Source: Bartonella machadoae (GTDB lineage Bacteria; Pseudomonadota; Alphaproteobacteria; Rhizobiales; Rhizobiaceae). Taken from it: DNA of 64,000 nt. The position numbers and the translations under genes were made by a program. The notes under the pieces are model-generated. The model did not search any database, was not told the origin of the DNA, and worked only from the letters and a program-made list of their open reading frames with translations. How positions within the stretch are numbered: position 1 is the first letter of the stretch; every line of letters begins with the position of its first letter. The DNA is taken from the NCBI RefSeq assembly GCF_022559585.1, contig NZ_CP087114.1, forward strand, positions 2,116,501-2,180,500, in the 5' to 3' direction. Positions 47,426 through 64,000 of the stretch are shown piece after piece.

Positions 47426-47569
47426 GGTCAGAGCTTCACCATTATCACCTTCAGAAAGCTCTCCTTGTCCTTCTTCTTTCCATCCCTGTTCATCCCCACC
47501 TTTGCGCATCCCCAAATCTTTCGCTCCCAAATCTTTCGCTCCTTGGTCTTCCGTTCCCATATCTCTTTC

Positions 47570-47690
47570 CCCTCATGTTTTTACAAACGTTCTCTCATGT
47601 TCTTACAACGCTTTTTTCAATTCTCGTTTCACACGGCAATAGATTCTCACCTGCTTAAAGACACCATAATAGAGCTGTAGAATAATCATG
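47570..47690 (-). pseudogene. Remnant of the membrane-module gene
   Basis: The minus strand reads MIILQLYYGVFKQVRIYCRV followed by KRELKKAL and a stop. This matches the C-terminal end of the intact membrane protein at 49007-49576 (MIILQLYYGGFKLVRMYRRV). The rest of the gene is absent. Confidence 0.75.
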
Positions 47691-47944
47691 CTAAAAAGAG
47701 AGAAGTATCTGAAAGAAACACTGCCACAAGCATAAGCATAATCGAAGAGGGAGGAATATTTTATTCTTTAAAAATTTTCTTCAAAAAAGAGATAACAATC
47801 AATTGACTGTTGATTTTTCCCCTCAACATCCTTCAAGACATTTTCAATCCACTTTTAAAAGCGTGTTTCTGTTTTACATGTTCTTTAAAATATCCAATTG
47901 TAGAAAGAAGCCCTTTATTGTCCCCAACCATCAAGCACTCTCAA

Positions 47945-48874: not shown

Positions 48875-49006
48875 GGTCAGAGATTTATTATCATCAACTA
48901 CATAAATCTCTTCTTATCCTTTTTCTTTTCATCCCTGTTCATTCCCATTTTTGCTTATCCTCATGTCTCTTGTTCTTATGTCTTTCGTTCCCATATCTCT
49001 TTCCCC

Positions 49007-49576
49007 TCATGATTTTACAAACGCTCTCTCATCTTTGTGCAAGGCTTTTTTCAGTTCTCGTTTCACGCGGCGATACATTCTCACCAGTTTAAAGCCACCA
49101 TAATAAAGCTGTAAAATTATCATGCTAAAAAAAGAAGCATCTGAAACAATCAGTGCGACAAATGCAAGCGCGAAAGAAAAGAATATGATAACAGTCTCGT
49201 AGCTATCCTTATTGTTCTTTTTATACAAATTGTTTTGGAGACAGGGTATATTCTCCCATTGTGAATTTATCTCTTTTAATTTTCGTCTATTTTTTTCCAA
49301 CAAAGACCATAAGATAGAATAAAATATCATCACAACCGGTATCGAAGCAAAAGCACATACGATAAAAACTTGCCAAAACACAAGGAGAGAAAAAAGCGTG
49401 GTTTCCTGCCACACTATAAGTTTCCATTGTGCGAAGGAGGGCATAAAGAGCATTCTATTCCACAGCATAATGATCAGTGAGAGGGAAGAAATGACGATAT
49501 ATTCTCTTGCCGAAAAACCCTCTATCTCAAAAAAAAAGCACAATGCGTTATAAAATTTTGAATTTTTCTGCTTCAT
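49007..49576 (-). CDS. Small membrane protein, modules in order B-A
   Basis: 189 residues, about four helices. It opens with MKQKNSKFYN and the module-B motif FSAREYIVISSLSLIIMLWN. A second helix pair follows, then a charged coil (SLLEKNRRKLKEINSQW), as in other B modules. The C-terminal half ends with a module-A-like segment (MIILQLYYGGFKLVRMYRRV-KRELKKAL). The order is the reverse of the fused members at 49948, 53068 and 53677. Unknown function. Confidence 0.6.
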   Translation of the reverse strand: MKQKNSKFYNALCFFFEIEGFSAREYIVISSLSLIIMLWNRMLFMPSFAQWKLIVWQETTLFSLLVFWQVFIVCAFASIPVVMIFYSILWSLLEKNRRKLKEINSQWENIPCLQNNLYKKNNKDSYETVIIFFSFALAFVALIVSDASFFSMIILQLYYGGFKLVRMYRRVKRELKKALHKDERAFVKS

Positions 49577-49740
49577 TCCCCACCTTTTTCTCTTCTGCTC
49601 TCTTTACCATAATGCAATCACCCTAGGGCAATGATCATTTCATCATAGCGCAGCCGGTATGAGACAATTTACCCTCGTTTTTTGCATTTGCTCCGTTTTT
49701 ACAAGGGCACAATTTTCAATAACATGACGTTTCAAAAGCA

Positions 49741-49923
49741 TTACAAGCTCTCTGTATGCTTTTTCATTTCTCTGTTTAATTGTTGTGTCACCTTGAAATA
49801 CAGTATCCAACGCTTGATAAAAGAAGTATACAGCGCAACCACCGCTATCGTTAAAACAACATCAAGGACTATCCCGATAAAAAACAAGAGAAGGGATAAT
49901 TTCGCTATAGTCATAGCATCCAT
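49741..49923 (-). CDS. Small membrane protein, module A alone
   Basis: 60 residues: a long hydrophobic helix (KLSLLLFFIGIVLDVVLTIA), then the recurrent VALYTSFIKRWILYFKVTQQ motif and a charged tail (LNREMKKHTESL). It corresponds to the N-terminal part of the fused proteins nearby and is followed on the minus strand by the duplicated segment. Confidence 0.55.
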   Translation of the reverse strand: MDAMTIAKLSLLLFFIGIVLDVVLTIAVVALYTSFIKRWILYFKVTQQLNREMKKHTESL

Positions 49924-49947
49924 TTTTTACCCTCTTGCTTTCTCTTG

Positions 49948-50508
49948 CTAAATGGATTTCTCTCGTTGCCTAGTTAATTCTTCCAACTGCTGGATCTTTT
50001 TTTTCAACCGAGAAGTTAAGCTTGCACGAAGCACCACAATGACTGGAACGGATAGAAAAACACATACCGAAATCAAAAACAACGCCATAACAAAACAAGC
50101 AAGCACCACAAATCTCTTCTCGTCTACATGAGGCCCCGCCGATTGAAAGAAAGCGATATAAACATAAGTTTTAAAAGCCATAATGATGAGAGAGAGACAA
50201 GATACAATGCTATAATCTTTCCAAGAAAAAGCGAGCCATTTTTTAAACATCAAGGCTCTTTCCTCTGTATCCAGAAGGGAATTTTGGTACAGTTGTTCTT
50301 TTTTACTTTTTTCAAGATGACAAAAGTGCTGTGGCTGCTCTTTGATCACGCGCTTTTGTTGCTTTACCCAATAATACAACCTCAAACGTTTGAAAAAAGC
50401 ATAATAAGGCGTCACAATGATCATATTAACAAAGATGGCAAAAACCACGATACTGAGCACCATGAAAAAAAAGAACGGCATTATGAGCATTATGAGTCCT
50501 GGTCCCAT
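49948..50508 (-). CDS. Small membrane protein, fused modules A-B
   Basis: 186 residues. Module A at 1-60 (MVLSIVVFAIFVNMIIVTPY, YAFFKRLRLYYWVKQQKRVI), a polar linker, then module B from ~85 (LAFSWKDYSIVSCLSLIIMA, two more helices, and the closing coil LKKKIQQLEELTRQREKSI). Starts 5 bp after the neighbouring minus-strand gene. Confidence 0.6.
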   Translation of the reverse strand: MGPGLIMLIMPFFFFMVLSIVVFAIFVNMIIVTPYYAFFKRLRLYYWVKQQKRVIKEQPQHFCHLEKSKKEQLYQNSLLDTEERALMFKKWLAFSWKDYSIVSCLSLIIMAFKTYVYIAFFQSAGPHVDEKRFVVLACFVMALFLISVCVFLSVPVIVVLRASLTSRLKKKIQQLEELTRQREKSI

Positions 50509-50513
50509 AACGC

Positions 50514-50873
50514 TTATCCCCTAACGGCTTCGTCTTGTTGCTTTGTTGCTTCTTCTTGCTGCATTGTTTTTTTCAATTTCCGTTCCCGCATACTATGAAT
50601 TCCCCAAAGAATAGGGAAAGGTGTGAGAATGCAAAGCCAAATAAAAACTGGCAGGAGGAAAATCACATACCCCACACCGCTCCACCCCTGCAGCGTCTGG
50701 ATAGTGGTCTTTGCATAAGCAGGAACGTTTAAAGCCATCATGATGGGAAATGCGCAGAGCATTATAAAAAAGCTCTGTAATATGACTTTATAATTTTCCC
50801 ATGAAAAAACCAATGATCTTTTACATGAAAAAGAAGTCCGTCCTTTATAAGACGTTGCGTTTTTCTTCTTCAT
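50514..50873 (-). CDS. Small membrane protein, module B alone
   Basis: 119 residues beginning MKKKNATSYKGRTSFSCKRS. The module-B signature follows (LVFSWENYKVILQSFFIMLC), then a helix pair and the closing charged coil (ERKLKKTMQQEEATKQQDEA). First gene of the leftward cluster. Confidence 0.6.
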   Translation of the reverse strand: MKKKNATSYKGRTSFSCKRSLVFSWENYKVILQSFFIMLCAFPIMMALNVPAYAKTTIQTLQGWSGVGYVIFLLPVFIWLCILTPFPILWGIHSMRERKLKKTMQQEEATKQQDEAVRG

Positions 50874-51593
50874 TTTTTCCCCTGCTTTTTGACTGTTTAT
50901 TACCCTTAAGTTTTTATGCTATTTTTCACAGCGTATAAAAGGATTCTTCACTTTTCTCAACAACTGATTTTTTGAAGCGAATAACTTTAAACACACCCTC
51001 TCCATAAATTTCCCATCCCCTCTCTTATAGAATCCACGCTTTACTAGAATTTCTCAATCTGCATTGGAAGAGGAAGAGGACCACAGATATTTGCATTAAT
51101 ACGGCAAACATTCACACCCCCCTGCTTCTCAATCGCCCCCATTGACGTGTCGATGTATAAAGGAAAGATTATAACTATCGTATTTACCATTTCTTTACAA
51201 CTATTTTTTCATCCTACACGATGGCGCCTTGTTTCTTTTACAGTTATTTTTTTCTCAACAGCTTTTTTAAGGCTCCCTCTTTAATATTGCACAATATTGC
51301 ATATTGGACAGCAGCAAGTCTCTCACTCTAAAAGACTGAACTTTCCCTTTTCATGGATACTTTTTCAACAACATGTTCAACAACATATTCTGGCAAATTG
51401 TGACTGATTTTTACCCTTTACCAGCTTTTTCCCATCACCACAGCCCATTCAAACAGCCCATTCAAGATGAATTCCCTATACAAATATGAAGGCAAATGAG
51501 AGCTCTGTGGACTGTTGCAGTTTTTGCATGCTAGATGGGAGCAAGCGTATTGCGTCTCTCTGTTTGTGTCATTTCTAAAACGAGGAGGCAGCC
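50874..51593. other. Intergenic region with decayed fragments
   Basis: No intact gene. Around 51040-51120 the minus strand reads GGVNVCRINANICGPLPLPM-QIEKF to a stop, which looks like the end of a lost gene. 51480-51590 matches, inverted, the DNA after the integrase fragment at 63.5 kb. Confidence 0.4.
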
Positions 51594-52000
51594 TCATTTA
51601 GGGAGAATATAAAGACGTAAAGGTAAAAACCACTCACTCTCTTTACCATTATTTTTGCGTTCAGCTTTACGGCTTTCAAAAGCATCGAGAGCAATATCTT
51701 TTAAAGAATGCAGATTACGCCTTGCCTCACGCTTTTGTTTCTTACATTCTTTGAATAAAGTCACGCCCCTCATGCAAAACAAAACGCCATCAGGTTGCCA
51801 ATTCACGAGCCTGTTTTAAAGAAACATCTCTTAAGATACCCACGTCCATCTCACGACGCCGCCCGTAAATAATATATCGATAAATCCATTGAGCACCACC
51901 ATCTTTACGCTTATGAAGGTACAAGCCAGTACCATCATTCTCTTTGCCAGCCGTCCATATTGCGACAGCCCTTTCTATTGAAACGATTCATAAAAGGCAT
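51594..52000 (-). pseudogene. P4-type tyrosine integrase remnant (N-terminal part)
   Basis: Reading leftward from MPFMNRFNRKGC near 52000, broken frames give a DGWQRE/GTGLYLHKRKDGGAQWIYRY-like arm-binding domain. Then comes RREMDVGILRDVSLKQAREL-like text, and finally an intact stretch HSLKDIALDAFESRKAERKN to FLPLRLYILPK and a stop. This matches DUF4102/P4-type integrases. The catalytic domain is missing. Confidence 0.8.
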
Positions 52001-52200
52001 TTTGACTCTTTGTCTTTGGAGTTTGTTACTCACACGCCAGCCCCGCTTATGACGTGTAAAAAATGATAATGATTGTTTCAAAATGAGAGGATTTAAGATG
52101 AGATGAGAGGATCTCCAATATTTGGGCAATATTGGGGTTATGATACAAGTTAAAAAAGAATGAATTCTCTTTGTAAATCAATATGTTGTCCTAGATGAAC
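52001..52200. repeat. Integrase-upstream sequence, inverted copy of 62.95-63.10 kb
   Basis: TTTCAAAATGAGAGGATTTA-AGATGAGA and GCTTATGACGTG are found in reverse complement at 62.97-63.05 kb. Together with the integrase fragments this forms a ~600-bp inverted repeat around the 52-63 kb block. Confidence 0.7.
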
Positions 52201-52511
52201 AAAGTCATAAATTCATGTCTATATGCGGTAAGTTCGTTTTTTATATTCTTTAGCTCTTAAAAGTGTTTTACTTTTCTCATTTTAGATGCTAATGGAACAC
52301 TCCGCTTTTCTGTGTTGATTGGCATGATCCGTCATTCTTTTCGAAGTGTGTGACAGTGTTTACAGTGTGCGACAGTGTCTTTCCTTTTGTTGAGAAGGTG
52401 AGAAACTGAAAAGGATGAGGATGTGGTGCCATTTGCACGGTTGTTAAGAAGCATTTTCGATAGATAGCTTATTTTTTGCTTGTCTAAAATATTTATGAAG
52501 GGGGGAGCAAC

Positions 52512-53039
52512 GTGACCACAGACGAACCACAACAGCAATCTTTGCAACAGCGTGGAGGTGCGGACTTTGTCTCTCCGAGCACTTTTGCTAAAGAATCTCG
52601 GCTGCTTGCTTTTAAAGATAAGATGACTCTCTCTACAAAAGATTATGTCATATTGTTTTTCCTATCCCTTATCATATTAGTGTTTGTGGTTATTGTAGCA
52701 TGCATCCGACCTATGGAGTTGTTTCATGTGGTGTCTAAGGAACAAGCTGAGGCAATCTTTCAAGAAAGTCTTCATAAAACGCTTCTGGAAAATTTAAAAA
52801 ATATGTTCTTGATGGGATTTTCTTCCAGCGAAATGAATATGATAGAATTATATCGTGCTGCTGGGTGGAATAGCGTTTGGGCTTATCTCTTTATGATGCC
52901 GCAATTTATTTTTATGGCACCTCTCTCGCTCTTTCCACTTGTTGTTGTCCTGCGCCTTATGTTGAAGCGTGAATTGAAGGACATGGGCCAGCAATTAGAG
53001 CAGCAATTGGAAAAGTCACCCCAAGAGTACATCTTATGA
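52512..53039 (+). CDS. Small membrane protein, module B
   Basis: 175 residues. The N-terminal 35 are polar (TDEPQQQSLQQRGGADFVSP). Module B follows: MTLSTKDYVILFFLSLIILV, a periplasm-like segment of ~60 residues, a second helix FMMPQFIFMAPLSLFPLVVV, and the closing coil LKRELKDMGQQLEQQLEKS. GGGGGAGC precedes the start (a GTG/ATG choice near 52512). First gene of the rightward cluster. Confidence 0.6.
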   Translation: MTTDEPQQQSLQQRGGADFVSPSTFAKESRLLAFKDKMTLSTKDYVILFFLSLIILVFVVIVACIRPMELFHVVSKEQAEAIFQESLHKTLLENLKNMFLMGFSSSEMNMIELYRAAGWNSVWAYLFMMPQFIFMAPLSLFPLVVVLRLMLKRELKDMGQQLEQQLEKSPQEYIL

Positions 53040-53067
53040 TTTCATAGAACAGGGTAGGAAAAGAAAA

Positions 53068-53637
53068 ATGGATTTTTTGGCAACGTTATCCGTCATATTC
53101 GTCGTTGGGTCGCTGGTTATCCTTTTTAGCATGCTAAGCATTGGTGCCAATATGGCAATTGTTGCAGTTTATTACTCTTTTATTAAACGTCTTTGCCGTT
53201 CATCCGAGCTTTCCAAAACCTTTAGAAAACTCAAAAATGATGCAACACAGCGCTTCAGTGGTTACAAAAAGGCAATAGAGGAAAATGGACCATCATTTGA
53301 CGTGAAAGCTTATCTCTCTTCATTCGAAGAATCTCTGTTTCTTTCCCAAAAGGATTATAAAAGAATCTTCATTTTCTCTCTGGTTACCTTTGTCTTGATT
53401 TTCGTGCCTTTCCTCATTTCAGTCGGTATGGCAGGAGAAAAAATGGCACAAGGAATGGACATAAAACAGTTTATAGCGAGTGATCCTTTCTTATTTGCTG
53501 TGTCTTCTTTTTTCTATCTTATCGTCTTTTTGAGCATCGCGTTGGTGGCTTTTTCCTTACCGGTGATTTTAATCTTCTACGGTATACTTAATCTGAGAGT
53601 GGAAAAGAAAATGGAAAGATTGGAAAATTTTGCTTAA
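53068..53637 (+). CDS. Small membrane protein, fused modules A-B
   Basis: 189 residues. Module A: two hydrophobic stretches then VAVYYSFIKRLCRSSELSKT. Linker with KNDATQRFSGYKKAIEENG. Module B: SLFLSQKDYKRIFIFSLVTF, a second helix, and a closing coil RVEKKMERLENFA. AGGAAAAGAAAA lies before the ATG. 28 bp from the previous gene, so operonic. Confidence 0.6.
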   Translation: MDFLATLSVIFVVGSLVILFSMLSIGANMAIVAVYYSFIKRLCRSSELSKTFRKLKNDATQRFSGYKKAIEENGPSFDVKAYLSSFEESLFLSQKDYKRIFIFSLVTFVLIFVPFLISVGMAGEKMAQGMDIKQFIASDPFLFAVSSFFYLIVFLSIALVAFSLPVILIFYGILNLRVEKKMERLENFA

Positions 53638-53676
53638 AGCAGCGCAAGCGATAAATAGAATGTGAGAGGGAAAAAA

Positions 53677-54213
53677 GTGCTTGTTTTTTTAGGAATTTGG
53701 GGTCTTCTAGGACTCATCATCGCAGCCATTATCGTCGGTATGTTTATCATTGGGCTTTTTTATTCTTTCATCAAGCAGGTGAGGTTATACTTTAATATGC
53801 TTGGAGAACTGAAAAAAAACGCACCCCATCCTCTTGATTCTCAGCAACGAGGAGGCAGAAAACAAAAAGCAAAATTGGAGACAACGGTGCCTGCCTTTCG
53901 TTTGAAGGAATCTCTGTTGCTTTGGCCAAGAGAGTTGAAAATAATCTGTTGTCTCTCTCTCATCATAGCGCTTTTAGAAGCTGCATTCTTTACAGCAAAT
54001 ATGGCAGGCTGGAAAAGTGACGTGAGCTTTTTTATCGCTCTGCTCTTGAATTTTCTATCGGCCTTTTTTGTTTTTTTTGCACCGATCGTCGGGCTATTCT
54101 GCATCAAGTTGACTGGTAAATTGAAAAAAACAATCCAGCAATTGGAAGAAGGAACGGTGCGACAAGAGACATTTTGCATGCAGGATGCGCGTGGAGGAAA
54201 ACATGACGAGTAG
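53677..54213 (+). CDS. Small membrane protein, fused modules A-B
   Basis: 178 residues from the GTG at 53677 with GAGAGGG upstream. Module A: LGLIIAAIIVGMFIIGLFYS, FIKQVRLYFNMLGELKKN. Module B: LLLWPRELKIICCLSLIIAL, two further helices, closing coil KLKKTIQQLEEGTVRQE. The next gene starts inside its last codons. Confidence 0.6.
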   Translation: MLVFLGIWGLLGLIIAAIIVGMFIIGLFYSFIKQVRLYFNMLGELKKNAPHPLDSQQRGGRKQKAKLETTVPAFRLKESLLLWPRELKIICCLSLIIALLEAAFFTANMAGWKSDVSFFIALLLNFLSAFFVFFAPIVGLFCIKLTGKLKKTIQQLEEGTVRQETFCMQDARGGKHDE

Positions 54214-54388
54214 TTTTGTAACATTCTTGACCCTCAATTTTTTGACTTCGGTCATCATGAGCTTTATCGTTACCGTACCGATTTTGGTCATTTATACCTT
54301 GTTTTTCAAGCGTGCGAGGCTTTATTGTAAAGCAAAAACAGCATTAAAAGTGCTTCAAGAGTGCGATGCAAGAGTTGAAAAACAGTAA
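54203..54388 (+). CDS. Small membrane protein, module A alone
   Basis: 61 residues from the ATG at 54203 (MTSSFVTFLTLNFLTSVIMS), with GGAGG upstream, overlapping the end of the previous gene by 11 bp. The motif ILVIYTLFFKRARLYCKAKT and a short charged tail follow. With the next gene it looks like a split version of the fused proteins. Confidence 0.55.
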   Translation: MTSSFVTFLTLNFLTSVIMSFIVTVPILVIYTLFFKRARLYCKAKTALKVLQECDARVEKQ

Positions 54389-54402
54389 AATAAAAAAGTA
54401 AA

Positions 54403-54741
54403 GTGAAGCAGAATTCAATGCCTGAGAAGAAGACTTTTTCTTCGTTTTTTGAAGAAAAAAAGACCCTTTCAAAACAAGACTATAAAAGAATATTTTATAT
54501 TTCTGTGGTCATGATGACTGCTCCGTTTACCTTTTTTTTAGGATTGCAGATCGTGTGCGGATTTTTAGGATTATGCATAGGAGGCGGTTATGATTTCCTT
54601 TCCTTTACAATCTTACAGCCGCTTGCATGGATTCTTGGCTGTGCTCTTGTCTTTTCTCCGATTATTTGGGTGCTCCATATTATAGTAACGCGTAAGTTGA
54701 AAAAAATGATTCAGCAGTTGGAAGAACAGAACCAAAGGTAA
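54403..54741 (+). CDS. Small membrane protein, module B alone
   Basis: 112 residues from GTG at 54403 (an ATG at 54418 is possible). Module B: FEEKKTLSKQDYKRIFYISV, helices around 45-65 and 75-95, closing coil RKLKKMIQQLEEQNQR. Last gene of the rightward run. Confidence 0.6.
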   Translation: MKQNSMPEKKTFSSFFEEKKTLSKQDYKRIFYISVVMMTAPFTFFLGLQIVCGFLGLCIGGGYDFLSFTILQPLAWILGCALVFSPIIWVLHIIVTRKLKKMIQQLEEQNQR

Positions 54742-55219
54742 GAAAATGGTGCCCCTCCTCTCCTACAGGTAGTGAAACTCATCCCATCCTTTGCGTGAAA
54801 AGAACGAAAGCCTTTTCGCGTTTCCTCAAAGCCCTTTCGCGTTTCCTCATTGCTGTTTTTTCTAGCGATCACTTTTGATTTTTGCGTTAGAGGGATATTC
54901 TTGTGCTTTTACTTCTTTTTCAAAGAAGGAAATTATGTTATTTTTCCAAAGAGAGAAGTTATATCGTGCAAAAGAATTGTTGCAACGACCTTTTGTGATA
55001 AAAAAGCTGTAAATGCTTTCTTGCATGATACTTTGTCGTCTTTCACAATGCTTACATTGCGATGCTTGCATTGCTAGGCAATCTTGAGATTCTAGAATTA
55101 TTTTATTACCAAAGTTTTGCTGTGTCTCATCAATTTGATTTGCATGACAGGTTTTGAGGTGTACGCATCTTTAAGATCAATCTTTTTGTATAAATTTTGC
55201 TTCATAGACAATATATTAA
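54742..55219. other. Intergenic region, no gene seen
   Basis: CCCTTTCGCGTTTCCTCA is repeated near 54830. Small frames on both strands look accidental. Confidence 0.4.
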
Positions 55220-55815
55220 ACTACAAACTCGGCACCATGACGCAACCAATCCATACCTACCCCCGAACCTATTGCACTTCTCATCTCATTTCTTATGATG
55301 CCAAATCTGTGCTTTGTGCTCCGCTCTTGTCCTCTCTGCATTAGGATTTTTGGAACATTTTCTAAGAACCATAGAGAAGGAAGAGATGCCGCACCACCTC
55401 GATAGGCACTTGTCTACGGACTCCTTGATTGGGAAGAGCCTCATTGTCTTTTTTGTTATCAGTATTCTTAGCAGCGCTCATCACGGCTTCTTTTAAAATA
55501 CGGATTATTTTATAGAGACAATGCACATTAAACTAAAGCACCGGCACCATGACGCAACCAATCCATACCTACCCCCGAACCTCTTACGCTTCTCACCCCA
55601 TTTCTTATGCCAATTCGCGCTTTGTGCCCCGCTCTTATCCCTCTCTGCATTGGGACACTTTCGGAACATTTTCTGAGAACGATAGAGAAGGAAGTGATGC
55701 TACTCCGCCTCGATAGGCACTTGTCTACGAACTCCTTGATTGCGCAGAGCCTCATTGTTTTTTTGTTATCAGTATTCCTAACAGCACTCACGACTGTCTC
55801 TTTTAAAATACGGAT
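55220..55815. repeat. ~305-bp segment present twice in tandem
   Basis: GGCACCATGACGCAACCAAT ... TCTTTTAAAATACGGATTAT occurs at 55230-55510 and 55546-55815. The minus strand of each reads NTDNKK...NQGVRRQVPIE-like text broken by frameshifts, so a decayed gene is likely inside. The family is unknown. Confidence 0.7.
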
Positions 55816-55882
55816 TATTTTATGAGGAGTGGCTTTTACACACTCTACGTGCGCGTCTTAGAGGTAGTCTGGTTTCTTTTGA

Positions 55883-56122
55883 CTGGTGAAGTTGGCTCTG
55901 TATGTTCTGTTGTCATACAATGCGTCCTCCCAATAATAAAAAACTATAAATGCGGGGATTTTTCACTGCATTTTCTCTCGTCTAGACGTAATGAAAACCA
56001 ACTACAGCAATGGCATTAAATACAATTTGCAACATACTGTTAACAGCAGAATAACACATATTGATTTATTCAAAATGAATCAGTTACGCAGTGTTAATGG
56101 TAAAAATTTAAAGAGTTAAGTC
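55883..56122. repeat. Cassette spacer copy A (right part only)
   Basis: Starts at CTGGTGAAGTTGGCTCTGTA and runs to the start of the next gene. It matches the right ~240 bp of the other spacers, including the leader GTTAATGGTAAAAATTTAAA-GAGTTAA directly before the ATG. Confidence 0.85.
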
Positions 56123-56857
56123 ATGAAACTATTTTCCATAACACATGCTGTAACATTTATAATTTTTGTTTCTATACCAATATTATTGGGATGTACTAAG
56201 GTAGATAGTCTAGATAAGTATGATAAACTTTACGAAAAATATGTGCGTGAAAATTATACAGAATCGGAATACCTAGAAAGGTTAAAAATGACGAAACTCC
56301 TTATGGACGATTTTTATAAAAATATAAAACGTACCATACCCATGCCACATGACTATAGTCATTTTTGGAGATATTTAATAACATTGCCAAGTAATCCTCC
56401 AAAATTTGATATTTTAAGGCATTATCACATAGTACTTGTTTTTTGTGGGCGCTTTGCTGATTTATGGCAAGGTGATAAAAGTATGCCAACACTCACATTT
56501 AATGATTTAAAAACTGAACTTGAGAATTTTAGAATTCGTAAAGCACAATATTATGATTCTTTGCATACTCTGCACAACCGTTTTTTCCAAGCAAAATTTG
56601 AAACATACTTTAATGACCCAATGTTTGAATATGCAAAAAAGTTTTTGGATTCTCCAAATGGAATTAGCCGAAAAGAGCAAACTATTCGTACAGAGAAGAT
56701 GATATTAGATAACGAGATCATCCGTTTTAAGAACACAGCAAGAGTATGCGATCTTGCTAGAAACGTATATATTAGAATGCTACCCCAAAGAAGTGTACGA
56801 CCACCTGTGAGATACAGCTATTTTGAAAAATGGAAGCAATATTTAACAAATTTTTAA
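56123..56857 (+). CDS. Putative lipoprotein, cassette gene 1
   Basis: 244 residues. A signal peptide with lipobox LLGC at about residues 21-24 (MKLFSITHAVTFIIFVSIPI) suggests lipid anchoring. The mature part is helical and charged, with YDKLYEKYVRENYTESEYLE, PPKFDILRHYHIVLVFCGRF-ADLW and MFEYAKKFLDSPNGISRKEQ. It is homologous to cassette gene 2, which shares the leader, the signal-peptide start and the PPKFD...H..I...CGR, YAKKFL, NGIS and ARxC motifs. No known family. Confidence 0.65.
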   Translation: MKLFSITHAVTFIIFVSIPILLGCTKVDSLDKYDKLYEKYVRENYTESEYLERLKMTKLLMDDFYKNIKRTIPMPHDYSHFWRYLITLPSNPPKFDILRHYHIVLVFCGRFADLWQGDKSMPTLTFNDLKTELENFRIRKAQYYDSLHTLHNRFFQAKFETYFNDPMFEYAKKFLDSPNGISRKEQTIRTEKMILDNEIIRFKNTARVCDLARNVYIRMLPQRSVRPPVRYSYFEKWKQYLTNF

Positions 56858-56868
56858 ACGAACGATCA

Positions 56869-57463
56869 AAGTGCTTTTGAAACGCATTAAGGGCGATACG
56901 CAATGAATTTACAAGATGCGGTAGAATTTGGTCTTCACTAACAAGATACTGTATTGCTGCGTAGATTATACTGTTTATAAAAGCATTGTCATTGTGCTTC
57001 TTTTAGTGCTTTTTGCATGTAAAAAACTGTTTTGTTGCCAATTCATACCCTTACTCCTTGTCTTCTCATCACAAGAGGATGGTATTGGAGATGGTGCTTA
57101 GCACACCTTTTTACAAAGATCATTGGTGTTTATCTGTAGAAGTGTTGTGCGGCATTATACGGCTCTTGAGTCAGCATTCTTTGCTGGTGCTGTTGGTTGG
57201 TATGGTTCTGCTAGCGTTGCCCTGTTGGTGAAGTTGGCTCTGTATTGTCTGTTGTCATACAATACGTCCTCCCAATAATAAAAAACTATAAATGCGAGGA
57301 TTTTTCACTGCATTTTCTCTCGTTTAGACGGAATAGAACCAAATACAGCAATGGCATTAAATACAATTTGCAACATACTGTTAACAGTAAAATAATACAT
57401 ATTGATTTATTCAAAATGAATCAGTTACGCAGTGTTAATGGTAAAAATTTAAAGAGTTAAACG
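56869..57463. repeat. Cassette spacer copy B (~595 bp)
   Basis: Full-length spacer: GCATTAAGGGCGATACGCAA on the left, GAGGATGGTATTGGAGATGG in the middle and a gene leader on the right. Open frames are broken by stops in different places in each copy. A minus-strand frame ending at the left edge is intact only in copy D. Confidence 0.9.
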
Positions 57464-58087
57464 ATGAAATTACTTTCCATAACACGCGCCGTAGCGTTTA
57501 TAACTTTTTTTTCTCTATCAATGCTTTATACGTCAATGTCATTTGGATTTATGCATATATTTACAAGTGTCGATGATATAGAGAAGTATAATAAACTTTA
57601 TCAAGAATACGCAGAACAATACAAAGCTTTTGAACATTTTGAAAAGCAAGAAAAAGCACGACAATTTATATATAGCCGTGGCCATCAAGATTCATCTCCC
57701 AAATTTGACCTTATATGGCATCGTCATATACTTGTTATTTTATGTGGACGTTTGGTGAATTTATTGCGTGGTGATTATAATGAAGAAATGTCATGGGCAA
57801 ATCTACCCAATGTAATAAGTAGTTTACGCTATGAATATGGTTGGAGTGAAGGAGATTTTATTTGGGCGTACAATATGTCCATGGACTCTAAAGATCGAAT
57901 GATTTATTACGCGAAAAAATTTCTTAATTCTTCAAGCGGAAATGGTATTAGCCCTGAAACACAAATGATTGATGTAGTGGCTGGTGTAAATGCTGCGATA
58001 AGAACTGGTAATCCTGAACCAGGTCAACGAACAGCTCGACTTTGCAGAGACTTAAAAACGATATACAATATAATGGAACCAAGATAG
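57464..58087 (+). CDS. Putative secreted protein, cassette gene 2 (paralogue of gene 1)
   Basis: 207 residues, signal peptide MKLLSITRAVAFITFFSLSM...SFG without a lipobox cysteine. The mature part contains DDIEKYNKLYQEYAEQYKAF, SSPKFDLIWHRHILVILCGR, MIYYAKKFLNSSSGNGISPE and RTARLCRDLKTIYNIM. Cysteines in CGR and ARLCR are shared with gene 1. Function unknown. Confidence 0.65.
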   Translation: MKLLSITRAVAFITFFSLSMLYTSMSFGFMHIFTSVDDIEKYNKLYQEYAEQYKAFEHFEKQEKARQFIYSRGHQDSSPKFDLIWHRHILVILCGRLVNLLRGDYNEEMSWANLPNVISSLRYEYGWSEGDFIWAYNMSMDSKDRMIYYAKKFLNSSSGNGISPETQMIDVVAGVNAAIRTGNPEPGQRTARLCRDLKTIYNIMEPR

Positions 58088-58104
58088 AAATGGAAAGATC
58101 TTTA

Positions 58105-58709
58105 ATGGTCAAAATATTTCTGGAGTACATTAAGAGCAGTTTGTCATGAATTAACAAGGTATGGTAGAATTTGGTCTTCACTAACAAGATACTGTATTGC
58201 TGCGTAGATTGTACTGTTTATAAAGGCATTGTGCTTCTTTCATTGCTTCTTGCATGTTTAAAAACTGCTCTGTAGCAAATTCACTCCATCCCTTGTCTTC
58301 TCATCACAAGAGGATGGTATTGGAGACGGTGCTTGGCACACCTTTTACACAGAGATTATTGGTGTTTATCTGTAGAAGTGTTGTGCGACATTATACGGCT
58401 CTTGAATCAGCATTTCTTGCCGATGCCATTTGCTGGTATGGTTCTGCTAGCGTTGCCCTGTTGGTGGAGTTGGCTCTGTATGTTCTGATGTCATACAATA
58501 CGTCCTCCCGATAATAAAAAACCCCGCAAATGCGGGGATTTTGAACTGCTTTGAACTGCACTGCCCTTCGTCTAGATACAATACGACCAGTGCCGCATTT
58601 GTCATTAAATACAATTTGCAACACATTGTCAACACCAAAATAACACATATCGATATATTCAAAAAGAATCGATTAGGTAATTAAAAAATATCAATTAAGG
58701 TATAAAACA
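58105..58709. repeat. Cassette spacer copy C (~600 bp)
   Basis: The same spacer as B, with a well-preserved hairpin AACCCCGCAAATGCGGGG near 58520-58538 that is decayed in copies A and B. The last ~60 bp differ, giving a new leader for gene 3. Confidence 0.9.
58515..58542. terminator. Bidirectional hairpin terminator in spacer C
   Basis: CCCCGCA-AA-TGCGGGG with ATTTT on the plus side and TTTTTTATTAT on the minus strand. It separates the cassette genes into single-gene transcripts. Confidence 0.75.
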
Positions 58710-59231
58710 ATGTTTATAAAAACATCTTTATTCAGAAAAAGCATATTAATTATCGCACTTTTTACAACATATCTTATATTCATATTCCCTTCAAACGGAT
58801 ACACTGATGATGATTTAGATGAATTCTGCTGTTCAAAAGAAATAGTAAGACTAGAGAAAGCACGCAATGATTACCTGTATCAAAATTACCTTTGGTGGCG
58901 ACAAAGATATCTCGAGGCTGCGTGGATGAACAATCAAGCAAAACCACTACAAGAAAAATATATAAAGACTGTAATACACCAATGGCATACACTAATCATG
59001 GACCGAAATATTACATCGCATTACGTGCTAGACTATATGCACTCCGAAATAAAGCAAATGCAGTATTTAGCTAAAGCAAAACGAGATAAACAGCACGAAG
59101 AGGTATCTGAACGTCTCGATATCATTAACTCGGTTCGAAGGGATATTGCTATAAAAAAAGAAAAAGTTGAAAGGCTAGATCGTGAAATTAAAACAGTATA
59201 TAAGATACTTATTCGTTTTTTAAGTGAATAA
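58710..59231 (+). CDS. Putative secreted helical protein, cassette gene 3
   Basis: 173 residues with an N-terminal signal (KSILIIALFTTYLIFIFPSN, cleavage near NGYTDD). The mature part is helical: CCSKEIVRLEKARNDYLYQN, LWWRQRYLEAAWMNNQAKPL, and a coiled-coil tail (RRDIAIKKEKVERLDREIKT). Not similar to genes 1 and 2. Two adjacent cysteines follow the signal. Function unknown. Confidence 0.6.
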   Translation: MFIKTSLFRKSILIIALFTTYLIFIFPSNGYTDDDLDEFCCSKEIVRLEKARNDYLYQNYLWWRQRYLEAAWMNNQAKPLQEKYIKTVIHQWHTLIMDRNITSHYVLDYMHSEIKQMQYLAKAKRDKQHEEVSERLDIINSVRRDIAIKKEKVERLDREIKTVYKILIRFLSE

Positions 59232-59239
59232 TTGCACAC

Positions 59240-59828
59240 TTATGAAAAGTACTTTTGAAGTGCATTAAGAGCAACAGGCAACGAACTTACAAGATGCGGT
59301 AGAATTTGATCTTCACTCACAAGATACTGTATTACTGCGTAGATTAGACTATCTATAAAAGCATTGTGCTTCTTTGATTGCCTTTTGCATGGAAAAAACT
59401 GTTTTGTTGCCAATTCACTCCCTTTATCCCTTGTTTTTTCATCACAAGAGAATGGTATTGGAGATGGTGCTTGGCACACCTTTTACACAGAGATTATTGT
59501 TGCTTCGCAGTAGAAGTGTTGTGCGGTATTCTACAGCTTTTGAGTCAGCATTCCTTGCTGGTACCGTTTGTTGGTATGGTTCTGCTAGCGTTGCCCTGTT
59601 GGTGAAGTTGGCTCTGTATGTTCTGATGTCATACAATACGCCCTCCCGATAATAAAAAACCCCGCATTTGCGGGATTTTCACACTGCATTTTCTCTCGTT
59701 TAGACGGAATAGAACCAAATACAGCAATGGCATTAAATACCATTAGCAACACATTACCAACATTAAAATAACACATATTAATGGATTTAAAAGGGATCAG
59801 TTAAGCATATCTCTGATAGAGCATAAAC
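59240..59828. repeat. Cassette spacer copy D (~590 bp)
   Basis: Starts 8 bp after gene 3's stop. The minus strand is open for 79 codons ending exactly at the left edge (...VSEDQILPHLVSSLPVALNA), while the same region in B, C and E is interrupted. The plus strand has a 92-codon frame (ALLVKLALYVLMSYN...) that is also partly open in C. I cannot tell whether either was once a gene. Confidence 0.9.
59654..59678. terminator. Bidirectional hairpin terminator in spacer D
   Basis: CCCGCATTTGCGGG between AAAAAA and ATTTTC, the equivalent of the hairpin in spacer C. Confidence 0.7.
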
Positions 59829-59846
59829 ATGCAAAAGGTTATAAAC

Positions 59847-60455
59847 ATGTTAAAAATCTTATTAATTATCGTATTGCTCCCAATTGCTATAGGTATTATT
59901 GAAGGTCTATTTGAATCCTTACCCGATCTGATTATGTACGGTGCAATACATGCTGGTTTTATGCTATTCGGAGGGGTATTACTGTGCTTAGGATATACAT
60001 TATCTGCGCCCATGCTGACTATAGCAAATGTAATTCATGCAATTTGTAGACTTAAATTACGCAGAAGAACATGGAAAGAAACATTTTCATTCTGCGCTGT
60101 AGCATCTTTACCACCACTTATATCATCGCATATTGGATTGAGGTATATAGATGCTTACTTGAACTTTGAGCATTTAGAATCCATATGGTGTATAACAACG
60201 ATCATCTATTTTATCGCTTCACATTCGTTTATATGCACATTCGACGGCAAAGATCTTAAAAGCAAGATTATAGAGATGGTTGAATTCTATTGCGCAGTAC
60301 CTACATTGTTGTTCCTAGCTTTTTTGAACAAGTATAGTATAATACCAGCAATAATACTCGGGATATTATGGTTGTGCAGTTGGATTTCCCGTATATCTAA
60401 GAGGATACCTGATGAAAAAGAAAACTCTAATGAAAATACCTCTGGAGCGCATTAA
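59847..60455 (+). CDS. Multi-pass membrane protein, cassette gene 4
   Basis: 202 residues from the ATG at 59847 (AAAGG ten nt upstream); an ATG six codons earlier is possible. About five helices: LLIIVLLPIAIGIIEGL, HAGFMLFGGVLLCLGYTL, FCAVASLPPLISSH, WCITTIIYFIASHSFIC, FYCAVPTLLFLAFL/IIPAIILGILWLCSW. The last six codons (NTSGAH) are already spacer sequence, so the gene has been joined to the spacer edge. Unrelated to genes 1-3. Confidence 0.6.
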   Translation: MLKILLIIVLLPIAIGIIEGLFESLPDLIMYGAIHAGFMLFGGVLLCLGYTLSAPMLTIANVIHAICRLKLRRRTWKETFSFCAVASLPPLISSHIGLRYIDAYLNFEHLESIWCITTIIYFIASHSFICTFDGKDLKSKIIEMVEFYCAVPTLLFLAFLNKYSIIPAIILGILWLCSWISRISKRIPDEKENSNENTSGAH

Positions 60456-60800
60456 GGGTGATACGCAATGAATTAACAAGATGTGGTAGCATTTGATCTT
60501 CACTCACAAGATACTGTATTGTTGCGTAGATTATACTTTTTATAAAAGCATTGTGCTTCTTTTAGTGCTTCTTGCATGGAAAAAACTGTTTTGTTGCCAA
60601 TTCATACCCTTATCCCTTGTCTTCTCATCACAAGAGGATGGTATTGGAGACGATACTTGGCACAGTTTTTGCACAAAGATCATTGGTGTTTATCTGTAGA
60701 AGTGTTGTGCGGCATTATACGGCTCTTGAGTCAGCATTCCTTGCCGGTGCTGGTATGGCTCTGCTCGTGTTACCCTGTTGGTGCCGTTTTGCGGGTGTGC
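60435..60800. repeat. Cassette spacer copy E (left part only)
   Basis: Left ~365 bp of the spacer, beginning TCTGGAGCGCATTAAGGGTG inside gene 4's end. It stops near CTCTGCTCGTGTTACCCTGT. Copies A and E are thus the two truncated ends of the run. Confidence 0.85.
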
Positions 60801-61322
60801 CTTGTTTGAGATGACTTTGCCGGTATAGCTCTTCTGGTATGGCTTTGCCGGTAAAATATTTGCCATGGAAGGGTTCTAAAATCGATCTTGAACCGGTTAT
60901 ATTGAGACAGAAGAGATGGAAAAGACAAAACAACTCTGTCACACTTTGCTTACAATGAGGAGCAGGTCGATTGTTGATGGCAGAGTGGTTTGTTATCAAA
61001 ACTGAGAGCGAGAGCCCCGTAATTCTTGCAATACAATATTCTTAAATGGGCAATATTCTTAAATGGAAAGAGTATTCAATTGGTGAGACTGCAAATAATC
61101 ATGAAGAAAACAGGGTTTTTGCGAGGGGATGAAGGAGCGATATTTGTTATCAAAAGCACAAGAGATCTTGTTGAGATCCTTTCGTCACAAAAGAGGGGAA
61201 ATTCAAATGATGGTTATAAAACGGGTTGAATGCAAACAAGTGTTGAGAAAAACAAAGATCTTCTTTATACAGCGCGAGGTGAGCAATAGCTTCATAAGTG
61301 AGCAAAATGTAAAAGGGGAACA
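60801..61322. other. Region between the cassette run and the last membrane-module pair
   Basis: Short repeats of GGTATGGCTTTGCCGGT type near 60820-60860. A 65-codon frame (61129-61326) overlaps the next ATG by four bases but lacks a recognisable motif. Confidence 0.35.
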
Positions 61323-61646
61323 ATGAAGGGGAAAAATTTGGAAATGAAAAAAGAACCGCGCTCTTTTTCCTTCGAGCAAGTGTTTCTTTCAAGCAAAGAA
61401 TATAAAGTGATCTTCTGCATCGTTGTTGTTATTGTCATGCTAAGAGTGGCTTTATATGCATCCCTCCTGTTAGGATGGAAACCAACAGAGTGGCTGGCTG
61501 TTATTCTTGCCCTTATCGTGATAATTGAGAACTACATCTTCGGATGTGCTCTTCTTCTTATACCAGTTATGTTGGTGCTTCGCATCATATTGGGGTTTGT
61601 TTTGAAAAAATATCCAAAAATTGGAAAAAGCAATTCAGCAACGTGA
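61323..61646 (+). CDS. Small membrane protein, module B alone
   Basis: 107 residues beginning MKGKNLEMKKEPRSFSFEQV, with AGGGG before the ATG. Module B motif FLSSKEYKVIFCIVVVIVML, then two helices; the closing coil is shortened (FVLKKYPKIGKSNSAT). A frameshift at the end is possible, because another frame there reads KKIQKLEKAIQQREK, the expected coil. Confidence 0.55.
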   Translation: MKGKNLEMKKEPRSFSFEQVFLSSKEYKVIFCIVVVIVMLRVALYASLLLGWKPTEWLAVILALIVIIENYIFGCALLLIPVMLVLRIILGFVLKKYPKIGKSNSAT

Positions 61647-61677
61647 AAAAATACGTCAGGAGCAATAAGGGTGGAAA

Positions 61678-61893
61678 ATGCGCGGTGATCTTATAGCATT
61701 AGTTATCATGATAGCTCTGATCGTGGCTATCTTTGCAGTTTTCATTAACATGTTAATTTTTGCACTTTTTTACTCTGTTTTTAAGCGAGAGAGAATGAAT
61801 AACCAAGTAAAAAAAGAACTAAAAAGAGTGCTTCAAGAAAATCAGACAGCACTGGTGCCACCATGTCGGGAAAATAGTACCGCAGATGTGTGA
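61678..61893 (+). CDS. Small membrane protein, module A alone
   Basis: 71 residues: ALVIMIALIVAIFAVFINML, IFALFYSVFKRERMNNQVKK and a charged tail (ELKRVLQENQTAL). It follows the module-B gene by 31 bp, the reverse order of the 54.2-54.7 kb pair. Confidence 0.55.
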   Translation: MRGDLIALVIMIALIVAIFAVFINMLIFALFYSVFKRERMNNQVKKELKRVLQENQTALVPPCRENSTADV

Positions 61894-62950
61894 AAAAGTA
61901 CGCAACGCACTTTGTGATGGCCGGTGAAAATTGCTAAAAAGGTGATTGGCTTGCGCTCTATCATTATCTGATCACGAAGGGCTTTTCCTCTGTTATCATG
62001 AGAAAATGAAGGACTTGTGAGGACGCGAAAGTGAAGAACTGCTTTCAATGTGATTGTCATTTGCGCAATGAACGGTATTGTTTCCGCAGTTTGTAAGACT
62101 CTTAATCTTCATGATACGACAGCTTTGCTTGCCATACAATTGGTGCTCGTGATGCCATTGTTCTTTGTGAGGAAGGGATGGAAAATCTTTCAAAAAAGAG
62201 TGCGTGCGGGGCAATGCACGAAAGCACGAGATAAAGCTTTTAAAAGAGTGGTGGAAAATTATGATTTCCATGAATTGCTTGGTTTCCAAAAGGCTCCTCT
62301 ATTTTGAAAAAGGTGCTGCCTTTTGGGGAACAAGGAGAGCCTAGGGCTGTTGTTGCTCTGTGACGTTTTGCGACCTTTGCTTTGCTTGGCGAGCAGGAGA
62401 TCTTATGCTTTCGCACAAAGCGCTTCTGAGAAGGATAGCCATTAGGTTTTGAGTAAAAGCCTTTTCAAGGTGTGTTGCGGCTTTGGGGTTTGTTTTGGTC
62501 GAACGGTGGTTCTTTGTGTCAATCTGGCATAAGAGACCCGCATCGGTTTTGCATCGGGCTTATATCGGTCTTGCGTCGACCGAGTATCGGTTTGGTATGA
62601 GGCTTGCGTCAGACTGGCATTGGGGAAAATCTCTCAAAGGAGAGCCTAGGGCTGTTGTTGCTCTGTGACGTTTTGCGACCTTTGTTTTGCTTAGCGAACA
62701 GGAGATCTCATGCTTTTGCACAAAGCGCTTTGGAGAAGGGTAACCGTTTGGTTTTGAGTAAAAAACTCTTCAAGGTGTATGGGGCTTTGGGGGGTGTTTT
62801 GGTTGGACGGTGGTTCTTTGTGTCGATCTGGCATGAGGGTCCCTTGCATCGGTCTTGCGTCGGTCTGTTATCCGGTTTATATCGGGTTTGCACTGGTCGG
62901 GCATAAGAATTTGACAACATATTGATTTATAATGATAATTAATCGTTTTC
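61894..62950. repeat. Decayed region with a ~210-bp direct repeat and GC-skewed low-complexity DNA
   Basis: GGAGAGCCTAGGGCTGTTGT ... TGGTTCTTTGTGTC occurs at 62335-62520 and 62637-62822. Each is followed by ATCGG(T/G)(T/C)TTGC-type runs. A GTG-started frame at 62050-62307 has one hydrophobic segment (LLAIQLVLVMPLFFVRKGWK), vaguely like module A, but is doubtful. Confidence 0.65.
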
Positions 62951-63096
62951 ATATTGAATTAACCCCCCGAATATTGTAAGATTCTCTCATCTTAAATCCT
63001 CTCATTTTGAATCAATTAAAATCATGTGCTTGCACGTCATAAGCGAGGCTGGCGTGTGAGTAAAAAACTCCAAAGAAAAGAGTCAAAATACCTTTT

Positions 63097-63988
63097 ATGA
63101 ATCGTTTCAATATAAAGGGCTATCGCAATATGGCGGCTGGCAAAGAGAATGATGGTACTGGCTTGTACCTTCATAAGCGTAAAAATGGTGGTGCTCCTTA
63201 GCTTTTACAGAGATACCATTTACGGGCGGTGTCGTGAAATGGACTTGGGTGCTCTTTAAGAGATGTTTCTTTAAAACAGGCTCGTGAATTGGCAATTGGG
63301 TGGCGTTTTGTTTTGCATGAGGGTCGTGACCTCATTCAAAGAACGTGAGAAACAAAAGCGTGCGGCAATGCGTAATCTGCATTCTTTAAAAGATATTGCT
63401 CTCGATACTTTTTTTGAAAGCCGTAAAGCTGAACTCAAAAATTGATGGTAAAGACGGATGCTGGTTTTTCTTTTACGTCTTTATATTCTCCCTAAATGAG
63501 GCTGCCTCCCCGTTTCAGAAATGACACAAACAGATAGATGCAATACGCTTAACTCTGGTATACAAAAGCTGCAACAACAGAGAACACATTAATCCACCTT
63601 AATCTTTATCTCAAACATGCTGCTGCAATGGGACTGGATGTTGATCTACAAGCAATAGAAAAAAGAAAAAGCACCCACGCCCTTAGGAAAACAACAGTAT
63701 AAAACGCAAAATAGACCAGCAATGGATTGGAAAGATATACCAGCTTTTTATCAAACACTCTGCAAAACAACAACCATACCACAACTGACTTTGCGTCTGC
63801 CTATTCTGACAGGTGTTCGCACAGACCCTTTACGTCATATCCATAAAGATCAGATTGATGATGATATATGGACCATCCCTGCTGAAAATATGAAAGGAAG
63901 GCGTGATGCTACAACAGAGTTTCGTGTGACTCTATCAAATGATAGCATTAGAATTGTTGAAACCAGCACGCCTGCTTTCTCGCAATAA
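63097..63988 (+). pseudogene. P4-type tyrosine integrase remnant (longer copy)
   Basis: The frames are broken, but the order of an integrase is kept. MNRFNIKGYRNMAAGKENDG is followed by GTGLYLHKRKNGGA-like text, HSLKDIALDTFFESRKAELK-like text, LRLYILPK, and then an intact stretch 63722-63988. That stretch holds MDWKDIPAFYQTLCKTTTIP, LRLPILTGVRTDPLRHIHKD and TIPAENMKGRRDATTEFRVT. The last block contains the catalytic Arg region (TGVRTDPLR). Homologous and inverted to the fragment at 51.6-52.0 kb. Confidence 0.85.
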
Positions 63989-64000
63989 TTTTTTTCTGCA

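What the first reader, a model, noticed from the sequence alone, without database searches (positions are those of the whole stretch)
55883..60800. Cassette-like run: four different secreted/membrane genes separated by near-identical ~590-bp spacers
Five spacer copies (A-E, the outer two truncated) alternate with four genes: two related exported proteins, one unrelated secreted coiled protein and one multi-pass membrane protein. The spacers are far more alike than the genes and carry a bidirectional terminator on one side and a promoter/leader on the other. Each gene thus forms a self-contained unit. Gene 4 even takes its last codons from the spacer edge. This looks like a system in which variable genes are exchanged or duplicated between constant borders by homologous recombination. 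The products could be surface antigens, effectors or immunity proteins.
Basis: partly seen in the sequence, partly recalled or inferred. Interest (0 to 1): 0.75.

Follow-up and report, generated by a model that had tools for sequence, protein, structure and literature searches.

The report
Stacked prophage accessory-gene cassettes in Bartonella
A bacterium's chromosome carries four different envelope-protein genes lined up in copies of a small phage-gene frame, the same frame in which Bartonella prophages carry exchangeable accessory genes, possibly used to keep other phages out.

Summary
The cassette pattern is real and its origin is clear. The host is a Bartonella. The repeated spacers are pieces of two prophage genes: the tail of f2, and the head and leader of f4, which precedes the terminase genes. 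In P22-like Bartonella prophages the slot between f2 and f4 holds antisense exported or membrane genes (51 of 61 slots, nine families), sometimes with toxin-antitoxin genes (23 of 61). The window's four genes belong to three of those nine families. The array is four such units stacked outside any intact prophage. One junction recurs in all three internal spacers, so one unit was tandemly duplicated. The genes' closest relatives lie in other species' prophages while the borders mostly match each other, so cassettes were swapped. At the same chromosomal site B. harrusi has one unit; in nine other relatives fetched I found no border element between the flanking genes. Membrane cassettes evolve fast (largest family C0: median dN/dS 0.87) beside f2 and f4 (0.18, 0.15) and toxin-antitoxin cassettes (0.08-0.16). 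Function is inferred: superinfection exclusion or another envelope arms race. I rate it a new variant of a known kind, the phage moron slot.

The parts
55762..55883 (-). left end of the array: remnant of f4 continuing past the duplication junction
   Evidence: tblastn f4 55762-56073, 39%; alignment with four prophage f4 heads
55884..56122 (.). 5' border A: f4 head on the minus strand and leader with decayed terminator
   Evidence: 94% identical to border B
56123..56857 (+). gene 1 (family C0, 244 aa, hydrophobic start with lipobox-like LLGC); closest 60% aa in slot L065
56858..57225 (-). 3' border 1: frame-broken tail of prophage gene f2 (minus strand), then a short non-f2 stretch up to the junction
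57220..57237 (.). duplication junction, CCCTGTTGGTG joined to AAGTTGG
57226..57463 (.). 5' border B
58088..58461 (-). 3' border 2: broken f2 tail
58456..58473 (.). same duplication junction (one base differs after it)
58462..58709 (.). 5' border C: leader identical over 49 nt to that of the prophage at 760 kb of this genome; intact terminator hairpin
58710..59231 (+). gene 3 (family C6, 173 aa, one hydrophobic segment near the start); 58% aa to slot gene L071
59232..59599 (-). 3' border 3: broken f2 tail
59594..59611 (.). same duplication junction
59600..59828 (.). 5' border D: leader identical over 50 nt to border B; terminator hairpin
59829..60455 (+). gene 4 (family C10, 208 aa, 4 predicted membrane segments); 51% aa over 161 residues to slot gene L072
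60433..60783 (-). 3' border 4: broken f2 tail (to about 60743), then the non-f2 stretch, which here runs on into other DNA after CCCTGTTGGTG
54403..54741 (+). left flanking membrane-protein gene (f1 family) that marks the chromosomal site; 92% aa in G054
61323..61646 (+). right flanking membrane-protein gene (f1 family); 71% aa in G054

Best explanation
The locus is a tandem stack of four prophage accessory-gene (moron) units, lying outside any intact prophage in a Bartonella chromosome. SHOWN: in P22-like Bartonella prophages a fixed slot between f2 (near an SSB gene) and f4-terminase-portal holds one, in the longer slots several, antisense exported or membrane genes, sometimes with sense toxin-antitoxin genes; the window spacers are the f2 tail and f4 head and leader of that slot; one duplication junction is shared by all three internal spacers; genes and borders have different nearest relatives; a related species has a single unit at the same site. 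INFERRED: a slot fragment was left at this site, was duplicated through a TGGTG microhomology, grew to four units by unequal crossing-over, and individual cassettes (gene plus part of the leader) were replaced by homologous recombination with prophages, perhaps delivered by the Bartonella gene transfer agent. INFERRED, weaker: the products work at the cell envelope in a phage-phage or phage-host arms race, most likely blocking DNA entry of related phages as SieA does in P22, so that the stack keeps several exclusion genes after the prophage itself is gone.
For: Slot architecture in 20-kb contexts; terminase, P22-type portal PF16510 8e-124, capsid, SSB, integrase. 61 slots: 35 with exported or membrane genes only, 17 with these and toxin-antitoxin genes, 6 toxin-antitoxin only, 3 neither; 51 of the 61 hold a gene of the nine families. 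The window families C0, C6 and C10 all occur in slots. Junction and ends. Array 3' borders 80-92% to each other, at most 79% outside; 5' borders A-B 94%, C nearest to the 760-kb prophage of the same genome. Gene 2 against L060: gene 90.2% nt (dS 0.19) but borders 170 of 230 and 208 of 306; gene 2 against gene 1: borders 224 of 238 and 275 of 324, proteins 29%. Same site in G054: one unit, window 57226-60430 not there as extra units; nine other fetched loci without border element between the flanking genes. Stacks elsewhere: three in L186, two in L194 and in L048. Predicted membrane segments in 66 of 70 members of C0, C1, C5-C8, C10-C12 and in 0 of 42 of C2-C4 and C9. dN/dS contrast.
Against: No function was tested. 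PADLOC gave 0 of 10 cassette proteins and the C0 model has no fold match. There are no expression data and no convincing promoter in the gene direction. Border sequence may drift freely in the array while prophage f2 is under selection, which widens border distances to prophages; that the synonymous distance of gene 2 (0.19) is below border divergence lessens this, but it rests on one good pair. For gene 3 and L071 the borders (171 of 232, 229 of 309) and for gene 4 and L072 the borders (174 of 225, 222 of 292) are as alike as or more alike than the genes (80.6% and 65.5% nt), so the reciprocal pattern is clear only for gene 2. Gene 1 may simply be the original resident gene. High dN/dS can partly be weak constraint: genes 3 and 4 have dN/dS 1.50 and 1.25 against their nearest relatives, and only 8 of 78 C0 pairs reach Fisher p<0.05 for pN>pS and 1 reaches p<0.01, uncorrected and not independent.
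Confidence: 0.72

Rival explanations
1. Remnants of several prophages piled up at one site: each unit was left by a different integrated and then deleted prophage, with no cassette exchange.
For: The genome has many f2 copies (19 matches, array fragments included), and in L186 two slots lie within about 8 kb.
Against: All three internal spacers share one f4/f2 junction, and the 3' borders are closer to each other than to any of the other copies compared; independent deletions would give different junctions.
Confidence: 0.1
2. Plain tandem gene duplication with fast divergence: all four genes descend from one gene in place.
For: Genes 1 and 2 share leader and signal-peptide start (D6: 90% over 186 nt).
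Against: Genes 3 and 4 show no similarity to genes 1 and 2 in the all-against-all comparison, and each has relatives in slots of other genomes. The border of gene 3 carries a leader identical over 49 nt to another prophage.
Confidence: 0.04
3. A phase- or antigen-variation locus of the bacterium, in which silent cassettes recombine into an expression site facing the mammalian host.
For: Exported products, fast evolution, constant borders.
Against: The same gene families sit in prophage slots, and 23 of 61 slots also hold toxin-antitoxin genes, which is typical phage or plasmid accessory content. An expression site or silent copies were not searched for systematically.
Confidence: 0.08
4. Selfish or neutral residue: the moron stack is decaying and does nothing.
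For: f2 tails are broken in all four copies, terminators decayed in two borders, the gene 1 counterpart in G054 is split into two frames, and dN/dS of genes 3 and 4 against their nearest relatives is above 1.
Against: All four window ORFs are intact; dN/dS of gene 2 against L060 is 0.46 and of gene 1 against L065 0.42.
Confidence: 0.2

Closest known systems
Phage morons / lysogenic-conversion genes in a fixed slot (general knowledge, recalled)
   Same: Accessory gene between two conserved phage genes, opposite strand, content differs between otherwise similar phages; beside the terminase genes.
   Different: Here units are stacked up to four times outside a prophage and have exchanged genes there; the main promoter match of the border is the phage's own and reads the other way, and a cassette promoter was not shown.
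P22 SieA superinfection exclusion (PMC10883804, abstract and passages seen)
   Same: P22-like phage, small inner-membrane protein, three sequence types under 30% identical, acts on P22-like phages.
   Different: No direct sequence comparison with SieA was made; library searches show no relation. Bartonella cassettes also include exported, lipoprotein-like and J-domain types; exclusion untested.
Temperate phages acquiring DNA from defective prophages by homologous recombination (PMC3945230, search listing and start of abstract only)
   Same: Recombination between related prophages moves phage DNA.
   Different: No recombinase of the Bartonella phages was studied; the acceptor here is a chromosomal array.
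Brt RNA / trp loci of Bartonella (PMC5387305, passages seen)
   Same: Multi-copy Bartonella element with leader and possible terminator before a gene, in a plastic, prophage-bearing part of the genome.
   Different: Brt genes are followed by XRE-type regulator genes read in the same direction; here the leader reads away from the cassette. Brt sequences were not compared.
Integron gene cassettes (recalled)
   Same: Array of different genes in constant frames.
   Different: Exchange here appears to use long homology and a tandem-duplication junction; attC sites and an integron integrase were not searched for.

Membership tests
Phage moron | accessory gene of varying identity between conserved phage neighbours | tested here: met
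   61 f2-f4 slots with varied content
Phage moron | absent altogether from some related phages, whose neighbours are then adjacent | tested here: inconclusive
   3 of 61 slots have no recognised cassette, but L075 and L078 keep a gene start (read by eye) and L044 is decayed; no pristine empty slot was seen
Phage moron | own promoter and terminator | tested here: inconclusive
   the strong promoter match and terminator of the border read towards f4; gene-direction matches are weak
Phage moron | expressed from the prophage | not testable with these tools
   no RNA data
SieA-type superinfection exclusion | membrane protein of a P22-like prophage | tested here: met
   portal PF16510; predicted membrane segments in 66 of 70. 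Met for the slot families; the window copies lie outside a prophage
SieA-type superinfection exclusion | sequence or fold relation to a known exclusion protein | tested here: inconclusive
   the four window genes have no PHROG, NCBIfam or PADLOC hit at E<=0.01 and only sub-threshold Pfam hits; only C0 was folded, no match; SieA itself was not compared
SieA-type superinfection exclusion | blocks DNA injection of related phages | not testable with these tools
   needs a bench test
Integron | integron integrase and attC sites | not tested
   not searched for; the integrase pieces in the window belong to the phage-type family f16
Brt/trp loci | XRE regulator gene downstream of the leader | tested here: not met
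   none of the four window genes has a regulator hit

The most novel reading that the evidence does not exclude
The stack is a domesticated phage-exclusion bank: a chromosomal array that collects cassettes from passing prophages by homologous recombination, fed by gene transfer agent particles, and keeps several fast-evolving exclusion proteins at once without an integrase.
Probability: 0.2. Interest if true: 0.8.

Novelty: new variant of a known kind. Interest (0 to 1): 0.52.

Why it matters
It gives a clear before-and-after case (no unit, one unit, four units at one site) of how phage accessory genes become a chromosomal array. It also points to nine unnamed, mostly fast-changing families of envelope proteins in Bartonella prophages as candidates for phage exclusion, in a genus whose phage-like particles carry chromosomal DNA between cells.

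Tried and rejected
Tried: Rfam on 50000-64000: five matches up to E 1, none reaching its gathering score. Spacer against phage records: no match. PADLOC on ten cassette proteins: none. Foldseek of the C0 model (24 sequences, mean pLDDT 86.8) in PDB and BFVD: nothing at E<=0.001. Homologues: gene 2 gives 24 proteins, itself included; the 19 with a source name are all Bartonella, 4 others carry no name; gene 3 gives one other, gene 4 none. That search misses distant relatives: slots do hold C6 and C10 genes at 27-58% identity. RNA of the leader: RNAalifold on 26 of the 46 distinct leaders found no two-sided change. With arms set by a pattern in my own script, 44 of 46 leaders, one pair shows T-A, T-G and C-G, but another is G-A in 10 and another T-T in 16 of 44, so the hairpin is suggestive only. 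The leader was recognised in 43 of 61 slots plus the four window borders; 18 slots, mostly of the second phage lineage, have another leader.

Rejected: transposon spacers (they are f2 and f4 sequence); Brt loci; independent prophage remnants; in-place divergence for genes 3 and 4. My idea that L075 and L078 are empty slots was dropped: they keep gene starts.

Rows dropped and limits: one search used C0 17 of 18 and C1 15 of 16 members, f2 57 and f4 54 of 61, left out C11 and C12, and kept only pairs with dS 0.03-0.8, at least 45% amino-acid identity and 60 codons. Searches printed only part of their matches; one search scored at most 11 candidates per genome. For the site comparison I fetched 10 loci; 42 and 37 of 71 genomes match the left and right flanking gene, which belong to a multi-copy family. 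Slots without f4 (the HicAB prophages at 74, 125 and 1165 kb) are outside the 61. Four of the 61 are from the window's own genome (L041-L044), and L043 and L044 are decayed copies with no terminase nearby; not all 61 were checked for a terminase gene.
Full report
What is there. The four genes and the repeated spacers are real. A 550-base spacer query hits 15 of 41 genomes searched: 14 of one genus, this one included, and one weak hit outside it. Away from the window it hits mostly as two separate halves, one before and one after a gene of about 400-750 bases. A terminase protein from one of these places finds 67 loci, all in records titled Bartonella, so the genus is Bartonella.

What the spacers are. 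In 20-kb contexts most solitary units lie in prophages with a fixed order: SSB gene, f2 (about 175 aa, phrog_15385, unknown), the cassette on the opposite strand, f4 (about 110 aa, phrog_11043, unknown), terminase large subunit, P22-type portal (PF16510, 8e-124), one more gene, capsid. The 3' border is the last 300 or so bases of f2, and the 5' border is the start of f4 with the leader before it. In the window all four f2 tails are frame-broken, and f4 ends after 15 codons beyond the junction (minus-strand ORFs). f2 occurs at E<=0.001 in 62 of 71 genomes of the genus.

What the slot holds. I collected 61 non-redundant f2-f4 slots; the distance from f2 to f4 runs from 214 to 3063 bases, median 845. 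Of the 61, 35 hold only exported or membrane genes, 6 only toxin-antitoxin genes, 17 both, 3 neither; one of the 35, L082, is a singleton outside the nine families, so 51 hold a gene of these, and 12 hold two or more. The nine opposite-strand families are C0 (window genes 1 and 2), C1 (with or without a J-domain, PF00226 3e-26), C5, C6 (gene 3), C7, C8, C10 (gene 4), C11 and C12. The other genes are MazEF-like (PF04014, PF02452), HI1420-type antidote (PF21716), HicAB (PF07927 and phrog_497, in prophages outside the 61), and RelBE-like, HigA-like and others named by eye only. By a crude hydropathy rule 66 of 70 members of the nine families have a predicted membrane segment (C6 only 3 of 6, C12 1 of 2), against 0 of 42 members of C2, C3, C4 and C9. 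IMG/VR viral contigs hold C0 relatives in 4 loci. In Rhizobium phages, the nearest for the portal (52.6%) and the only ones with an f2 relative (7 records, N-terminal half only, 30-34%), I looked at two of the seven records: between it and the terminase lie several small genes on the same strand.

How the array arose. CCCTGTTGGTG stands at the end of each of the four 3' borders (57220, 58456, 59594, 60773), and each unit begins with TGGTG(A/G)AGTTGG (55884, 57226, 58462, 59600). In the three internal spacers the two are fused. To the left of unit 1 the sequence goes on along f4; to the right of unit 4 it goes on into other DNA. So a single unit was duplicated between two TGGTG words; the mechanism is inferred. 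The full junction was found in this genome only, among 71. In the other nine fetched loci no border element lies between the flanking genes; in L056 border elements exist, but elsewhere, and in L210 the gene order differs. Orthology of these flanks is by best match within a multi-copy family.

Cassette exchange. The four 3' borders are 80-92% identical to each other and at most 79% to any other copy compared. Of the 5' borders, A and B are 94% identical; C is nearest to the prophage at 760 kb of the same genome (86%) and only 74-75% to its array mates; D is nearest to L043 (82% over 159 columns) and 80% to B. The leader of C is identical over 49 bases to that prophage, and B and D share 50 identical bases. 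Gene 2 is 90.2% identical in DNA to the slot gene L060 (dS 0.19), while its borders match at 170 of 230 and 208 of 306 positions; against unit 1 the borders match at 224 of 238 and 275 of 324 while the proteins share 29%. For genes 3 and 4 the nearest slot genes are too distant for this reciprocal test to be clear; for them the argument is that unrelated genes stand between borders of one array. Stacks of two or three units also occur in Ca. B. washoeensis (L186), B. raoultii (L194) and B. rattimassiliensis (L048), and decayed in this genome (L044); names rest on contig lengths.

Evolution of the products. Pairwise dN/dS medians: C0 0.87 (32 of 80 pairs above 1), C10 1.09 (2 pairs), C8 0.63 (6), C5 0.56 (20, 5 above 1), C1 0.49 (21), C7 0.38 (15), C6 0.37 (4, 1 above 1); f2 0.18 (728 pairs) and f4 0.15 (284), none above 1; toxin-antitoxin cassettes C2 0.13, C3 0.13, C4 0.08, C9 0.16, none above 1. 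So the contrast is strong for C0 and moderate for C1, C6 and C7. In 13 C0 genes, residues 61-100 and 181-200 are above 1 pooled, the other stretches at or below 1; pN exceeds pS in 30 of 78 pairs, with Fisher p<0.05 in 8 and p<0.01 in 1. That one, L070 and L126, differs by 1 synonymous and 40 nonsynonymous changes after residue 34 (p 0.002, uncorrected). Pairs are not independent. I read this as strong evidence for fast evolution and moderate evidence for diversifying selection.

Function. The window genes have no hit at E<=0.01 in PHROGs, NCBIfam or PADLOC and only sub-threshold Pfam hits. The C0 model is all-helical and matches no fold in PDB or BFVD at E<=0.001. The guess rests on context: envelope proteins of a P22-like prophage, many sequence types, toxin-antitoxin genes in the same slot, fast evolution. 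[quoted passage not shown] Bartonella particles that carry chromosomal DNA are described in PMC2697382 and PMC3610622 (passages) and would be a natural carrier for cassettes; that link is my inference. Among the papers listed by the searches (at most 20 shown each) no title or abstract start describes this slot or array; I read none of them beyond what is named here.

Noticed in passing
window 58462-58662 and prophage copies such as L055 10192-10410: Read towards f4, the border has TTGACA-N17-TTTAAT (exact in 38 of 61 slots), a leader of about 80 nt with a possible hairpin, a terminator CCCCGCAAATGCGGGGTTTTTT, then f4. It resembles a late promoter with an early terminator, as in lambda pR' (recalled), ahead of the terminase operon.
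   Followed up: partly
window 51423-52033 (-) and 63203-63994 (+): Fragments of a phage-type integrase lie as inverted repeats about 11 kb apart around the array and its neighbour genes.
   Followed up: partly
window 46499-54741 and 61323-62307: A multi-copy family of small membrane proteins (f1) flanks the array; slot family C11 is weakly similar to it (best E 2.6e-6).
   Followed up: partly
own genome about 74, 125 and 1165 kb (L045, L046, L188): Three prophage regions with the same HicB cassette gene beside f2; in the two mapped ones other genes stand in place of f4 and terminase.
   Followed up: no
L187 (G054) 7394-8374: The f2 tail is repeated in tandem, about 310 bases per copy, after a single unit.
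   Followed up: partly
window 55215-55823 and 62332-62843: Two more sets of direct repeats spaced about 305-312 bases, 85-89% identical, beside the array.
   Followed up: no
L043 10214-10783, L042 10370-10735, L048 9989-10546: Cassettes with a DnaJ-type J-domain followed by membrane segments; the C-terminal part of the one in L048 is shared with cassettes of family C1 that lack the J-domain.
   Followed up: partly
L048 from 10915 and unit 1 of L187: C0 cassette genes split into two frames; described only.
   Followed up: no
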